From positions 124,001 to 188,000 of the forward strand of contig QFXJ01000045.1 in NCBI GenBank assembly GCA_003402375.1: a stretch of 64,000 nt of DNA, written 5' to 3'. The notes beneath the pieces are model-generated. The model was given only the letters and a program-made list of their open reading frames with translations, did not search any database and was not told the DNA's origin. Positions within the stretch are counted from its first letter, which is position 1. Each line of letters starts with the position of its first letter. This document shows positions 46,238 to 59,011 of this stretch, one piece after another. The stretch is from Candidatus Nitrotoga sp. CP45. GTDB taxonomy: Bacteria; Pseudomonadota; Gammaproteobacteria; Burkholderiales; Gallionellaceae. A program made the translations under genes and the position numbers.

Positions 46238-46352
46238 TAGGGAAACACTGATTAATCCACAATCGTCGTTCCCGCGAAAGCGGGAACCCAGTTAAATCAA
46301 TAAGCTGGATCCCCGCTTTCGCGGGGATGACGAATTAATCAGCGTTTCCTTA
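46238..46352. mobile_element. MITE-like element with terminal inverted repeats
   Basis: TAGGGAAACACTGATTAAT ... ATTAATCAGCGTTTCCTTA termini are imperfect inverted repeats; inside are two palindromes TCCCGCGAAAGCGGGA and TCCCCGCTTTCGCGGGGA. Confidence 0.75.
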
Positions 46353-46360
46353 GGTCTCCG

Positions 46361-50693: not shown

Positions 50694-50709
50694 ACCTATC
50701 TCCTTTGTT

Positions 50710-50806
50710 CCTCCCCCTTCAAGGGGGAGGTTAGGTGGGGGATGGGGTGTTAAGTTGATCACAAATTTCACCCATCCCCACCCCAGCCCTCCCCTTGAAG
50801 GGGAGG
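50710..50806. repeat. inverted pair of ~40-bp palindromic repeats with a 19-bp spacer (MITE-like)
   Basis: CCTCCCCCTTCAAGGGGGAGGTTAGGTGGGGGATGGGGTG (50710..50749) and its imperfect reverse complement CACCCATCCCCACCCCAGCCCTCCCCTTGAAGGGGAGG (50769..50806), between hsdS and rhuM. Confidence 0.85.
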
Positions 50807-50811
50807 TAGCA

Positions 50812-52038
50812 TTACGCCACCGTGACTTGGCCGTTCATCAGTAGGGGCAGGAGCCAGTCGCGTAATCTGGAAAGCTCTTGATTTTCAAAAATAGATTGCT
50901 TAATTTTTTTAAACCAGGGCGTTACGACATCTTGATATCTTTGTGCGACAGAGCGTTCAGGAAGAACAATTCTTGATTCTTTTAAAAACTTGAAATGCCG
51001 TGCATATCCATAACTAGATAAGTCGATATCTGATACCACTTGATACATGAGGTAGCCGGGCATTCTTTGGCTTTCGGAAAGCAAAATCTGCGTGCCATCT
51101 GCTCCCCGCGCATAGTTGAAGTTCACCAACTTGACTGCTCTAGTGTGATCGCCAAACACAACATGGGGTTGCTTGGGAACGATTAGGGATGATTGTTCGT
51201 TTGTAAAACCACAGATATAACTCTGGCCTTGATCGATCACTGGGATCAAGCCGGTCTCAAGGATGTTTTTGTTCAGTATCTTTGTTGTAGTGGGCACCTT
51301 ACCCAAGACATCTCCGATAAGCGAATCCTCCCACCCCGCCGGAATCTCCCGTTTCAGGGTGGGGTTGTAAACCATCTTGCCGCCGGAGGATTTGTAGGGT
51401 TTGCCGTTGGCGTCGGGGAAGTCTAACTGCACGAACCAGTAGTCGTACAGCGTCTTGGCCATCGCCTCCAACTCGGCGTTGATGCGGTTGTTGCAGTCGA
51501 TTTTGGCGTCTAGGGCGGAGAGGACGGCGGCGATTTTTTTCTGCTCAGAAATGTCCACAGGCAATACAACGGGAAGCGAACGTATTATTCCTAGATTAAT
51601 TAATGGAACAGTGCTCCCTGTGTTTCTATTTGTAATTGCATTAAAAATCCATGGGCTGGCTAGCCACGCGTATAAAAAATTGGGGTCTGCTTTTTCTGTG
51701 TCCGCACGAAACCGGAGTTGCTTGTTTGATATGACATATCTTTTGTAAGCGCCACCCTTGGGAATCATTCCAACTTGGCCGATAGTTCCAGCGGCGGTGA
51801 ATATTAGGTCGCCTTCAATTGCGTAAGCATTCAACTCATCTGCCTTTTCCTCTGTCAAAAAAACGAAACCGTCGTCAATAAATTTCCGGTAGTCGATGGT
51901 TAAGTTATTGCCCCGGATAACGGGAATGCCTTCGTTTCTGAAATACTGTTTTCCTATGTTGCTTCCGAATGGCCCCGAAATTACTGATCGACCTGCTGCC
52001 GCCAAATCTCCAAGCCTTACTTTTTTCCTATTACTCAT
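50812..52038 (-). CDS. hsdS: type I restriction-modification specificity subunit
   Basis: Two target recognition domains with conserved regions (INLGIIRSLPVVLPVDISEQKKIAAVLSALDAKIDCNNRINAELEAMAKTLYDYWFVQLDFP). Confidence 0.96.
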   Translation of the reverse strand: MSNRKKVRLGDLAAAGRSVISGPFGSNIGKQYFRNEGIPVIRGNNLTIDYRKFIDDGFVFLTEEKADELNAYAIEGDLIFTAAGTIGQVGMIPKGGAYKRYVISNKQLRFRADTEKADPNFLYAWLASPWIFNAITNRNTGSTVPLINLGIIRSLPVVLPVDISEQKKIAAVLSALDAKIDCNNRINAELEAMAKTLYDYWFVQLDFPDANGKPYKSSGGKMVYNPTLKREIPAGWEDSLIGDVLGKVPTTTKILNKNILETGLIPVIDQGQSYICGFTNEQSSLIVPKQPHVVFGDHTRAVKLVNFNYARGADGTQILLSESQRMPGYLMYQVVSDIDLSSYGYARHFKFLKESRIVLPERSVAQRYQDVVTPWFKKIKQSIFENQELSRLRDWLLPLLMNGQVTVA

Positions 52039-53665
52039 ACCGCAATCCCGTCAACTGCTTCCTGATCTCCTGCTCCAACCCCGCCGATTCCTTGAAAAGC
52101 TTGTCCAGGTTGTCGGTAAAGCCCTGCAACTTTGCGGCGAACTGCGCCGGCGTCAGATCGCTGTACTCGATCTTCACGTCGAAATACTGCCCGGCACTCA
52201 AGCTGTAATTCTTGTCGGTGATCTCGTCGTAGCTCACAACCACCGAGAAATCCTCCACCGCCTGCTTGGCGTTGAAGGTAGCGATGATGCGGTTTTCCTC
52301 AGCATCGGAAAGCAGGGTTTTCTGATTCTTGCCATCCTTGACCTTGGTGCCAAGGTTGGAGGCATCAACCAGTACCACACCTTCCTTGTTGGCGTCGTCG
52401 ATGAATAGGATGGAAACATTGGTGCCGGTAGTTGCGAAGATGTTGCTGGGCATGGAGACCACGCCGGCGAGCATCTTCTTGTCCACCAGATGTTCACGAA
52501 TCTTCCTGTCGATACCCGACTGGGCGGTGACGAATCCGGTGGGCACCACGACCGCCGCCTTGCCGCCAGGTTTCAGCGAATAGATGATGTGCTGGAGAAA
52601 GAGCTGGTAGATGGACATCTTATCGACGGCCTGCTTGGGAATGTTCGGCACGCCCGCGAAGAAGCGTTCCTGATGCTCCTTGGCGTCCAGCTCGTTGCGG
52701 TCATCACTGAAATCCATCTTGAAGGGCGGATTGCTGACGATGTAGTCGAACTTCTTCAGCACCTTGCCCTCCCGGTGATAGGGGTGGAGCAGGGTGTTGC
52801 CCTGGATGATGTGGGGGATGGAGTGCACTAGGTTGTTGAGGATGAGGTTCAGGCGCAGCAGGCTGGAGGACTTCTGCGAGATGTCCTGCGAATAGATGCT
52901 GCAGCGTTGCTCGCCGATGGCGTGGGCGATGTTCATCAGCAGGGAGCCGGAACCGGCTGATGGGTCGTAGCAACTGACATCCTTGACCTTGCCGCGCACC
53001 GCCTCCGGCACCAGGATGGCTGCCATGATTTTGGCGACGGCGTGCGGGGTGTAATACTCGGCGTATTTGCCGCCGCTGTCTTTGTTGTAATCTTTGATCA
53101 GGTATTCAAACAGCGCAGCGTAGAAGTCATATTTCTGCGTGAAGATGCGCTCGAAGCTGAAGTCGCCCAATTTGTTGATGAGGGCGCGGCAGAAGGCGTC
53201 GCGCTTGGAGGGATCGGAGATGAATTCGCTGACCCGGTCGAATAGGGTGATCTTGGTGCCGCCATCGGTTTTCACCGCGAAAATTTCATTGTTGCTGATA
53301 GCGATGTCGCGCAGGGTATCATCAAACAGTTTGGCGAATTCCGGCGCGGTCTGACGGTTCCACAGGTGGGCAATGAAGTGCTCGGGTTTCAGGCGAGCGG
53401 TGTCCGGCCCCATCTGCATTTGCAGCATGTCCAGCTCGTTGGTACTCAGGCTGGCGATGGCTTGTTCCCACTTGTCTGCCTGCGCGAGGTCGGGCCGGAT
53501 TTTCTTGGCCTCGAAGGCGAATTTGTCATTGAGAAATTTATAGAGAAAGACCTGGGTGATGATCTTGAATTCGTTGCCGTCGTTGCCCAAGCCATAGGCG
53601 GCGCAGATGGCTTTTATGCTGTCGATCAGCTCACGCGTGCGTTGTTCAAATTCCTGCGTTATCAA
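52031..53665 (-). CDS. hsdM: type I restriction-modification methyltransferase subunit
   Basis: DPSAGSGSLLMNIAHAIGEQ and NPPF (DYIVSNPPFKMDFSD) N6-adenine methylase motifs. Apparent TTG start at 53665 overlaps the DUF559 stop. Confidence 0.97.
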   Translation of the reverse strand: MITQEFEQRTRELIDSIKAICAAYGLGNDGNEFKIITQVFLYKFLNDKFAFEAKKIRPDLAQADKWEQAIASLSTNELDMLQMQMGPDTARLKPEHFIAHLWNRQTAPEFAKLFDDTLRDIAISNNEIFAVKTDGGTKITLFDRVSEFISDPSKRDAFCRALINKLGDFSFERIFTQKYDFYAALFEYLIKDYNKDSGGKYAEYYTPHAVAKIMAAILVPEAVRGKVKDVSCYDPSAGSGSLLMNIAHAIGEQRCSIYSQDISQKSSSLLRLNLILNNLVHSIPHIIQGNTLLHPYHREGKVLKKFDYIVSNPPFKMDFSDDRNELDAKEHQERFFAGVPNIPKQAVDKMSIYQLFLQHIIYSLKPGGKAAVVVPTGFVTAQSGIDRKIREHLVDKKMLAGVVSMPSNIFATTGTNVSILFIDDANKEGVVLVDASNLGTKVKDGKNQKTLLSDAEENRIIATFNAKQAVEDFSVVVSYDEITDKNYSLSAGQYFDVKIEYSDLTPAQFAAKLQGFTDNLDKLFKESAGLEQEIRKQLTGLRYE

Positions 53666-54168
53666 AGGGGTGCTCCTGTGTTATTAAGGCTTCCATCTGC
53701 TCTATCTCCCTCCCCTTCAAGGGGAGGGTGGGGATGGGGTAAAGTAGTCTTGTTCTGTAAAGCTGTCCAGATAGCCTCGACCACTGCGTCAGTTTCTTGT
53801 AAAACTTGGTTGTTCCAAAATCGCAATACCTCAAATCCAGCTTTCTGCAAACGCCTGTCGCGTTCTCGATCTCGCTCGTTTTCCAAGTGCTGGCCACCGT
53901 CAACCTCGACAATCAAGCACCTTTCCAGACAGACAAAGTCCAATACGAAATCCATGTACGGATGCTGGCGGCGAAATTTACAGCCAGCCAATTGCCGATT
54001 GCGTAGCCGTTGCCATAACCGAATTTCCGCATCGGTCATGCTGTTTCGCAGTGTTCGTTGAAGCTTTTTGACGATAATCGTGCGGTTTGTTTGAGCCTTC
54101 ATCTCTACCCCATCCCCACCCCAGCCCTCCCCTTGAAGAGGAGGGAGTTTTGTTTCACCCGCTGACAT
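53662..54168 (-). CDS. DUF559 (Vsr-like/PD-(D/E)XK) endonuclease-domain protein
   Basis: LQRTLRNSMTDAEIRLWQRLRNRQLAGCKFRRQHPYMDFVLDFVCLERCLIVEVDGGQHLENERDRERDRRLQKAGFEVLRFWNNQVL. Real start likely MKAQTNR or later; ends read through flanking repeats. Confidence 0.92.
   Translation of the reverse strand: MSAGETKLPPLQGEGWGGDGVEMKAQTNRTIIVKKLQRTLRNSMTDAEIRLWQRLRNRQLAGCKFRRQHPYMDFVLDFVCLERCLIVEVDGGQHLENERDRERDRRLQKAGFEVLRFWNNQVLQETDAVVEAIWTALQNKTTLPHPHPPLEGEGDRADGSLNNTGAPL
53706..53741. repeat. palindromic GC-rich repeat, left boundary of the DUF559 cassette
   Basis: CTCCCTCCCCTTCAAGGGGAGGGTGGGGATGGGGTA; same family as 50710..50806 and 54106..54148. Confidence 0.85.
54106..54148. repeat. palindromic GC-rich repeat, right boundary of the DUF559 cassette (inverted)
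   Basis: TACCCCATCCCCACCCCAGCCCTCCCCTTGAAGAGGAGGGAGT is the inverted counterpart of 53706..53741. Confidence 0.85.
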
Positions 54169-57296: not shown

Positions 57297-57472
57297 CAGA
57301 TAAAATCTCCCTGTACTTGTTTTGTATTTGTCAGGCTGGCCCACTTCGCCCCGCGCCCCTTACCCGTAGGGGCAATCAGCCCCTTGCGCTCGCGCCAGCG
57401 GTAGACGGTGCTTTTTACCACGCTCAGGTGCTGGGCAACTTCGCTTGCGGTGACCCACGGTTCAGTATTCAT
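57296..57472 (-). CDS. 58-aa HTH (excisionase/AlpA-like) protein heading the type I RM operon; not in the supplied ORF track
   Basis: Manual translation MNTEPWVTASEVAQHLSVVKSTVYRWRERKGLIAPTGKGRGAKWASLTNTKQVQGDFI*; TGATG overlap with hsdR; paralogue of the HTH at 44669..45100. Confidence 0.8.
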   Translation of the reverse strand: MNTEPWVTASEVAQHLSVVKSTVYRWRERKGLIAPTGKGRGAKWASLTNTKQVQGDFI

Positions 57473-57528
57473 GGAATTGGCGCTCGGATTAAAGCCTTAA
57501 AGTCGTTCTAAATCGTCATCAGTCTAAC
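57473..57528 (-). promoter_or_regulatory. conserved leader of the RM HTH gene
   Basis: Minus strand TAGACTGATGACGATTTAGAACGACTTTAAGGCTTTAATCCGAGCGCCAATTCC-ATG; similar to 45101..45155. Confidence 0.5.
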
Positions 57529-57779
57529 AGGCAGACCGCTTGGCGACCACAAGTGAAGAGCGGCTGCACAAGCCAGTGCATAGCAATCCAAAAAGCATCG
57601 TTTTGCGCAACAACGGTGAAAAATGGGGGATATTTGAACTATTCACTTACGCCCCCGTCCTAAAGGGCATTAGGTAAACATAAAACTATCGCCTTATTTG
57701 CAGCCTTAAATATTACTGTTTCAGGTCTATCGGATCGCAAATTGAATAATTATGTATGTAAATTAAAAAAGGTATAGAA

Positions 57780-58235
57780 ATGAAGCAAATAACAATACGC
57801 CTACCGTTGGTGTTTTTCTCAATATTTCTGGTGGGAATATCGGCCAGCCAGTCAGCATTCGGGCATGGTGGTCCGTGGTATGGTGGCGGTTGGGGTGGAG
57901 GTGGCCGAGTGGGCATCTATCTTGGCGCACCGATTGGTTTTAACTTTGGGTTTTCTCCGTATTCATACTACAGGGCGCCGTACTACGGGTCGCCGTACAA
58001 TTATTTGCCTGCGCCCGTATATTATCCTTCTGTGCAGCAACCTCCGCAGGTAATTTACACTGAACGAAGAGTTGGTTCACCCCTAAGCTCACAGGAATCA
58101 CCCACAAATTCTATTCAAAATTTTCAGAACTCGTGGTGGTACTACTGCACGGCTTCCAATGCGTATTATCCCTATACTAAGAAATGCCCCGGAGGTTGGT
58201 TACGCGTCGCTCCGCAGCCTGTACTCGACAAATGA
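57780..58235 (+). CDS. secreted Gly/Tyr-rich small protein, function unknown
   Basis: Signal peptide MKQITIRLPLVFFSIFLVGISASQSAFG; GGPWYGGGWGGGGRVGIYLGAPIGFNFGFSPYSYY; C-terminal WYYCTASNAYYPYTKKCPGGWLRV. Confidence 0.75.
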   Translation: MKQITIRLPLVFFSIFLVGISASQSAFGHGGPWYGGGWGGGGRVGIYLGAPIGFNFGFSPYSYYRAPYYGSPYNYLPAPVYYPSVQQPPQVIYTERRVGSPLSSQESPTNSIQNFQNSWWYYCTASNAYYPYTKKCPGGWLRVAPQPVLDK

Positions 58236-58264
58236 CTGACTACATATAATAAGGAACCTGCGCC

Positions 58265-58852
58265 ATGCCCCAGAAATTAAAACTCTTTTCAATGCTAGTG
58301 GTGGTTTTCGGCATTAGCGCTTGTACATCGATCCCGGCGGGTCCGGGAATGCTTGTTTTACCTGGCACGGGAAAAAGCTTTAACCAATTTAGATTTGACG
58401 AAGACGATTGTAGACAATACGCCAGCGCTCAGGTTGGAGGACGCACGGCGAATCAGGCAGCCACTGATAGTGGTGTGAAAAGTGCTGTGGTTGGCACCGT
58501 AGTCGGTGTTACAGCAGGTGCTTTGTTAGGCGGGAACAGTGGTGCTGGGATTGGCGCTGGATCTGGATTGCTCATTGGTTCGGCGATTGGAGCGGGAACG
58601 GGTGACAGCTCAGGATACAACCTCCAGCAGCGTTATGACTTTGCTTATGTCCAATGCATGTATGCTAAAGGCCATCGGGTCCCAGTATCAGGTAACTTGG
58701 AAGATTCGCGGCAGCCCGTCATTAAAAACACCGCCGCTGTACGGGCACCAAGCGCGACCCCATCATTGCCTCCTGCTAGTTCTTCCGTGCCTCCGCCCCC
58801 CCCTCGCGGAAACCCGCCCCCGCCACCTTCGGGCGTTTCCACTGCCCCTTAA
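58265..58852 (+). CDS. glycine-zipper lipoprotein with proline-rich tail
   Basis: Lipobox GISAC; VVGTVVGVTAGALLGGNSGAGIGAGSGLLIGSAIGAGTG; tail SSVPPPPPRGNPPPPPSG. Confidence 0.8.
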   Translation: MPQKLKLFSMLVVVFGISACTSIPAGPGMLVLPGTGKSFNQFRFDEDDCRQYASAQVGGRTANQAATDSGVKSAVVGTVVGVTAGALLGGNSGAGIGAGSGLLIGSAIGAGTGDSSGYNLQQRYDFAYVQCMYAKGHRVPVSGNLEDSRQPVIKNTAAVRAPSATPSLPPASSSVPPPPPRGNPPPPPSGVSTAP

Positions 58853-58955
58853 GGGAGGCTAATCTGAGTTATGGGGTTACCCCTAAGAGTTACCCCTGTC
58901 TAAAGCTGGATGCTATAGGACAGTGTTACCCCGATTTGGACGATAAAGGCAAGAA

Positions 58956-58980
58956 AAAACCCGCACTTAGGCGGGTTTAA
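58956..58980 (-). terminator. rho-independent-type hairpin downstream of ssrA
   Basis: aaaaaacccgcacttaggcgggtttaa: stem AACCCGC/GCGGGTT with an A/T tract, located just 3' of tmRNA (minus strand). Confidence 0.7.
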
Positions 58981-59011
58981 GGATGTTACTGAACTTCTTG
59001 AAACACTTAAT

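What the first reader, a model, noticed from the sequence alone, without database searches (positions are those of the whole stretch)
50710..50806. 'Empty' version of the DUF559-flanking repeats ~3 kb away in the same operon (hsdS-rhuM junction)
The same palindromic repeats occur as a close inverted pair separated by only 19 bp, exactly in the hsdS/rhuM gap. The relation to 53706..54148 is like that of a MITE to its gene-carrying parent. Two copies in one operon, both at gene junctions, suggest a preference for stop/start boundaries or that insertions elsewhere are purged. The long hairpin could also affect hsdS/rhuM mRNA.
Basis: partly seen in the sequence, partly recalled or inferred. Interest (0 to 1): 0.65.

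Follow-up and report, generated by a model that had tools for sequence, protein, structure and literature searches.

The report
Empty partner of nuclease-carrying hairpin element
Between two genes of a restriction-modification operon sits a ~100-base inserted DNA element made of two unlike hairpins facing each other, a gene-less member of a widespread bacterial repeat family; related hairpins also bracket a small nuclease gene (DUF559), which may be what spreads them.

Summary
The inverted pair is real: arms 50709-50748 and 50771-50809, 22 nt apart, between the hsdS stop (50812) and the rhuM ribosome-binding site. In the 2.8-Mb genome the repeat was found only here and around the single DUF559 gene 3 kb away. 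It belongs to a dispersed family of paired-hairpin elements. All 15 empty copies aligned have two unlike ends (stem A CCCTCCCC; stem B mostly CCTCCCCC). The window's DUF559 element has A-A ends and the empty copy A-B, so it is better called a sibling than a deletion product. A related 98-bp A-B copy interrupts a cusA gene in frame, at a site unoccupied in about 90 listed places in relatives. A conserved attenuator is not supported: the closest operon and other rhuM loci lack the pair. Inverted hairpin pairs flank 18 of 27 sampled DUF559 genes, 0 of 25 rhuM genes and 3 of 390 random intervals. DUF559 is under purifying selection and folds like homing endonuclease I-Bth0305I and Vsr. Most likely a REPIN/MITE-like non-autonomous element tied to DUF559 rather than a RAYT; mobilisation by DUF559 is inferred, not shown. 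No held paper was found that describes this association.

The parts
50709..50809 (-). whole empty paired-hairpin element (about 101 bp, A arm first when read on the operon strand)
   Evidence: homologous over the whole length to L056, L073, L055 copies; aligned with 14 others
50771..50809 (-). A arm: hairpin CCTCCCC-TTCAA-GGGGAGG followed by tail GCTGGGGTGGGGATGGG
50709..50748 (+). B arm: hairpin CCTCCCCC-TTCAA-GGGGGAGG followed by tail TTAGGTGGGGGATGGGG
50749..50770 (.). spacer between the arms, unlike in sequence between most copies
50812..52038 (-). hsdS (type I specificity subunit); its stop codon lies next to the element
   Evidence: PF01420
49623..50693 (-). rhuM; ATG about 16 nt downstream of the element, RBS outside it
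   Evidence: PF13310
53706..54148 (-). gene-carrying sibling: DUF559 ORF between two inverted A arms
53665..54102 (-). DUF559 nuclease-fold protein, 146 aa from ATG 54102 (longer ORF 53662-54168 runs through the repeats)

Best explanation
50709-50809 is an insertion of a ~100-bp non-autonomous mobile element: two unlike palindromic hairpins (A and B), each with a G-rich tail, facing each other around a short spacer. It is a gene-less member of a repeat family whose other members bracket a DUF559 (Vsr / I-Bth0305I-fold) endonuclease gene, as at 53706-54148. Shown here: the pair is a dispersed unit with its own two-ended structure in several genomes; a related copy is present or absent at matching sites; stem B is kept by paired base changes; DUF559 genes carry inverted hairpin pairs far more often than controls; DUF559 is under purifying selection. 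Inferred: the DUF559 protein recognises the hairpins (as cruciform or single strands) and nicks or cuts at their base, so that repair or replication copies the unit elsewhere, moving both gene-carrying and empty units in trans. In this operon the copy sits between the hsdS stop and the rhuM RBS, leaving both reading frames intact; a mild effect on mRNA stability or hsdS/rhuM coupling is possible but untested.
For: Family and two-ended structure: 15 empty copies from several genomes, all A plus B or a B variant, with unlike flanks and mostly unlike spacers. Compensatory change in stem B, CG to UA and UA to CG in 3 of 10 sequences; 97.5% of cells paired. Insertion: in a CusA-type pump gene of G401 (L113) a 98-bp A-B pair adds about 31 codons in frame, while about 90 listed places in genomes of the family of G403 run across the same site without it. 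Link to DUF559: 18/27 DUF559 genes against 0/25 rhuM genes and 3/390 random intervals have flanking inverted repeats at score >= 16. Several dispersed DUF559 copies in one Gallionella MAG, alike over ~440-530 bp with unlike flanks. Palindrome-bearing genomes in an unselected Pseudomonadota draw all have DUF559, 10/10 against 76/239, Fisher p 1.7e-5 (not independent, since some palindromes flank DUF559 itself). DUF559 dN/dS 0.12-0.14 in all but the closest comparison; fold match to I-Bth0305I and, more weakly, Vsr. No Y1 transposase detected in the Gallionella MAG, and none of the Y1 loci of the repeat-bearing genomes carries these hairpins. A DUF559 protein of Caulobacter, VsrA, is required for a DNA damage response in cells lacking a cytosine methyltransferase (PMC12907096).
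Against: No excision, transposition or cleavage has been observed. No target-site duplication was seen at the empty copies, so their exact ends are inferred from where similarity stops. In the Gallionella MAG the DUF559 copies lie inside outer terminal repeats (GGTTCTATGTGA...) with an 8-bp direct repeat at L053, so a conventional transposase may move them there, with DUF559 and the hairpins as passengers. About a third of sampled DUF559 genes show no flanking inverted repeat. The window genome has eleven Y1-transposase matches of its own. No strictly matching unoccupied hsdS-rhuM junction was found.
Confidence: 0.6

Rival explanations
1. The pair is an insertion element, but the mover is a conventional DDE transposase acting on outer terminal repeats (MITE-like); hairpins and DUF559 are cargo.
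For: Gallionella DUF559 copies share outer repeats GGTTCTATGTGATTTACAGTGGGT / ...ATAGAGCC with an 8-bp repeat AAGATGTC on both sides in L053 and near-matches in L062 and L077; L198 has perfect 17-nt outer repeats, L218, L226 and L056 weaker ones.
Against: The window pair and most other empty copies tested have no outer repeat clearly above the shuffle range; A/B arms are alike across genomes while outer repeats differ from genome to genome.
Confidence: 0.2
2. REPIN moved by a RAYT (Y1 tyrosine transposase).
For: Two facing palindromes around a short spacer look like a REPIN; the window genome has 11 Y1 matches.
Against: No Y1 gene detected in the Gallionella MAG with most DUF559 copies, nor in G154, G119, G020; none of 25 Y1 loci has these hairpins in its flanks; no GTAG tag seen in the arms.
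Confidence: 0.06
3. A conserved regulatory hairpin (attenuator or terminator) of the hsdS-rhuM junction.
For: Strong predicted RNA stem; position between stop codon and RBS.
Against: Absent downstream of hsdS in the nearest operon and not seen upstream of the rhuM genes printed; no U-run; the same sequence occurs at unrelated places elsewhere.
Confidence: 0.05
4. Local internal deletion of a DUF559 element, i.e. a direct deletion derivative of the neighbour at 53706-54148.
For: Same operon; A arm 95% identical to the arm at 54109-54147. In G403 the DUF559 element (L055) has one B and one A arm like its empty copies.
Against: The window's DUF559 element has two A arms; the empty copy's B arm and spacer edges match a distant empty copy (L056, 87% over 98 bp).
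Confidence: 0.09

Closest known systems
REPINs (Bertels and Rainey 2011, PMC3116915)
   Same: Two inverted palindromes around a spacer, dispersed as one unit, associated with a gene flanked by the same repeats; can fold into one long hairpin.
   Different: No RAYT link found; associated gene is DUF559; arms unlike (A and B); no GTAG tag; fewer copies; some copies in frame inside genes.
MITEs
   Same: Short, non-coding, inverted ends, dispersed; a gene-carrying relative in the same genome.
   Different: No target-site duplication seen for the bare pair; ends are hairpins; presumed partner is a Vsr-fold nuclease, not a DDE transposase.
CGTC-tagged REPs (PMC3733652)
   Same: Paired palindromes whose mobilising enzyme is unknown.
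   Different: No CGTC/CCA tags noted in A/B arms; those stems mostly start with AT pairs, these are C/T-rich.
Rickettsia palindromic elements (from memory)
   Same: In-frame insertion of palindromic repeats into protein genes.
   Different: Unrelated sequence; an associated nuclease gene here.
Vsr / EDxHD homing endonucleases (I-Bth0305I, PDB 3r3p)
   Same: DUF559 has this fold; I-Bth0305I is a mobile-intron protein.
   Different: DUF559 sits between hairpin pairs, not in an intron; specificity unknown.

Membership tests
REPIN | two inverted palindromes acting as one dispersed unit | tested here: met
REPIN | cognate RAYT (Y1 transposase) gene flanked by the same palindromes | tested here: not met
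   25 Y1 loci from the window genome and other repeat-bearing genomes, none with these hairpins
REPIN | GTAG tag at the foot of the palindrome | tested here: not met
   arm sequences
MITE | occupied and unoccupied sites in relatives | tested here: met
   cusA site for the related copy L113; not for the window copy itself
MITE | target-site duplication next to terminal inverted repeats | tested here: inconclusive
   none seen for bare pairs; 8-bp repeat outside the outer repeats of Gallionella DUF559 copy L053
MITE | derived from an autonomous element with the same ends | tested here: inconclusive
   DUF559 element in the operon has A-A ends, empty copy A-B; L055 DUF559 element has B-A ends
CGTC REP | CGTC tetranucleotide at one end | tested here: not met
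   arm sequences against the description in PMC3733652
conserved attenuator/terminator | conserved at the junction in homologous operons | tested here: not met
conserved attenuator/terminator | stem followed by U-run (intrinsic terminator) | tested here: not met
DUF559 / Vsr-like nuclease (gene-carrying sibling) | Pfam PF04480 and Vsr-like fold | tested here: met
   E 1.8e-36; 3hrl, 3r3p; 1vsr weaker
DUF559 / Vsr-like nuclease (gene-carrying sibling) | endonuclease activity on the hairpins | not testable with these tools
   needs purified protein

The most novel reading that the evidence does not exclude
DUF559 proteins are the missing enzymes of a large RAYT-independent class of bacterial paired palindromes: a minimal mobile system with one Vsr/homing-type nuclease of about 120-150 aa that acts on two unlike hairpin ends (A and B) and spreads both its own gene and empty ~100-bp pairs, including in-frame insertions into protein genes.
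Probability: 0.35. Interest if true: 0.82.

Novelty: new variant of a known kind. Interest (0 to 1): 0.6.

Why it matters
DUF559 is a common Pfam family still called a protein of unknown function, and many genomes carry palindromic repeats without a known mobilising enzyme (PMC3733652 leaves this open for CGTC repeats). A statistical link between DUF559 and paired palindromes gives a testable candidate enzyme for such a class of repeats, offers a reason why DUF559 genes recur with the same C/T-rich palindromes, and accounts for LPPLQGEGWGGDG-like peptides in predicted proteins as translated repeat.

Tried and rejected
Rfam scan of 48-58 kb: no match. Unoccupied-site search at hsdS-rhuM through rhuM relatives: rhuM has other neighbours elsewhere, so no clean matching junction. 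Intergenic sites of L217 and L218: relatives G781 and G895 carry remnants or diverged sequence, so these were not counted as clean unoccupied sites. RAYT link tested and rejected. 'Plain deletion of the neighbour' weakened by the A/B versus A/A difference. Phage records: no copy. Plasmid records: same two-ended pairs in Photobacterium and Rahnella, in tandem. DUF559 hits in E. coli, Klebsiella and P. aeruginosa records without clear inverted flanks were not pursued. Literature searches found no report linking DUF559 to these repeats in the held library.

Full report
OBSERVATION. Two inverted palindromic repeats lie at 50709-50748 and 50771-50809, 22 nt apart. The hsdS stop codon (50812-50814) is next to one end, the rhuM ATG (50693) about 16 nt from the other; AAAGGAGATAGGT-ATG with the likely ribosome-binding site is intact. 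The same repeats, as two inverted arms, bracket a DUF559 ORF at 53706-54148. In the whole genome (2.8 Mb, 59 contigs) these are the only copies found and there is one DUF559 gene. In the window the palindrome occurs 3 times against 0.08 expected.

WHAT IT IS. Searching outward from the DUF559 protein and the palindrome gave the same repeats in Gallionella, Sulfuritalea/Rhodocyclales, Accumulibacter and others. Besides DUF559-carrying copies there are many gene-less pairs of ~100-120 bp with unlike flanks and mostly unlike spacers. Aligned, 15 empty pairs share one plan: arm A (CCCTCCCC-TTCAA-GGGGAGGG, tail YTGGGGTGGGGATGGGG) facing an arm B (mostly CCTCCCCC-TTCAA-GGGGGAGG, tail TTGGGAGGGGGATGGGG). 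The window copy is of this type and is 87% identical over 98 bp to a copy in another betaproteobacterium (L056). Photobacterium and Rahnella plasmid copies have the same A-B plan with other loops, in tandem. In stem B two pairs change on both sides in 3 of 10 sequences, and 97.5% of cells pair; the three are probably one lineage in G403, so this is few independent events. A Gallionella copy (L194) and L093 carry further stem variants with both sides changed.

INSERTION. At a CusA-type pump gene, G401 (L113) carries a 98-bp A-B pair where about 90 listed places run straight across the site. The product reads HKHLER-LHSSPFKGEAGRGMGEEGGAQPHPHPNPPLEGEGT-RQRAEAII against HKHLERLKDGGSRSEAMIDACKE in a relative, so the insert is in frame. 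The same linker holds other palindromic inserts in further genomes (L289-L293) and a decayed copy in L223. This indicates that A-B pairs enter existing sequence as units. For the window copy itself no strictly matching empty junction was found: the 95%-identical operon L050 has hsdR-DUF559-hsdM-hsdS but no rhuM and no pair after hsdS, and other rhuM genes have different neighbours.

LINK TO DUF559. In DUF559 genes sampled from 249 Pseudomonadota genomes without reference to repeats, 18 of 27 have flanking inverted repeats at score >= 16; 0 of 25 rhuM genes and 3 of 390 random intervals do. The sample is the best-scoring loci and holds some relatives, so the numbers are indicative. The sequences differ between lineages but the plan (hairpin plus G-rich tail, tails inward) recurs in alpha- and betaproteobacteria and, in looser forms, in Chloroflexi and other MAGs. 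Two alphaproteobacterial-type loci (L037, L044) and one rhodocyclal locus (L055) have B upstream and A downstream of the gene; the window and Gallionella copies have A on both sides. Genomes with the palindrome in an unselected draw all have DUF559 (10/10 against 76/239, p = 1.7e-5), partly because some palindromes are DUF559 flanks.

THE NUCLEASE. The alignment keeps D55, E66-x-D68 and H72; dN/dS is 0.12-0.14 in all but the closest comparison, including between Gallionella copies. The predicted fold (pLDDT 77) matches 3hrl and the homing endonuclease I-Bth0305I, and more weakly Vsr. Caulobacter VsrA, a DUF559 protein, is needed for the SOS response of cells lacking the methyltransferase ScmA (PMC12907096); repair of methylation damage is therefore another possible role for DUF559 proteins.

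MECHANISM. The best reading is a non-autonomous two-ended hairpin element whose partner is DUF559, by analogy to REPIN/RAYT but with another enzyme. That DUF559 cuts the hairpins and drives copying is inference. The main rival is conventional transposition by outer repeats, which seems to apply to the Gallionella DUF559 copies (8-bp direct repeat at L053) but not to bare pairs such as the window's. RAYT mobilisation is disfavoured. A conserved attenuator is disfavoured, though the strong stem may affect mRNA.

KNOWN OR NEW. The architecture is of a known kind (REPIN, MITE); the association with DUF559 and the conserved A/B asymmetry were not found in the held literature. Subscription journals are mostly absent, so novelty is provisional.

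Noticed in passing
L052, L053, L058, L062, L077 (Gallionella STB_49): DUF559 copies share outer inverted repeats GGTTCTATGTGATTTACAGTGGGT outside the hairpins, with an 8-bp direct repeat AAGATGTC in L053; the window DUF559 copy keeps a possible left remnant CTATGTAAATGTCAGCGGGTGAAAC.
   Followed up: partly
L113 1489-1586; L223; L288-L293: A linker of CusA-type pump genes in Rhodocyclales relatives is a repeated landing site for different palindromic elements, in frame in the copies translated.
   Followed up: partly
L225: A single arm appears to lie in frame inside a lipoyl/biotinyl-carrier-like gene of G403 (read by eye).
   Followed up: no
L051 and L058: Two Gallionella DUF559 copies carry swapped outer ends (TTGTGTAGATACC type on one side, GGTTCTATG type on the other), as if recombined through the hairpins.
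   Followed up: no
G154 (e.g. L020, L023): About 90 near-exact CCCTCCCCTTCAAGGGGAGGG palindromes, many in pairs with orientation opposite to the window's, in a genome with one DUF559 gene and no detected Y1 transposase.
   Followed up: partly
window 46239-46355: Another dispersed repeat: similar stretches in L085 (both orientations) and L055.
   Followed up: no
window 57315-59010: About 1.6 kb upstream of hsdR present here but missing at the matching place in L050.
   Followed up: no
L299, L301, L302: A-B pairs in tandem arrays on Photobacterium and Rahnella megaplasmids; in Photobacterium similar arms also follow a DUF559 gene.
   Followed up: partly
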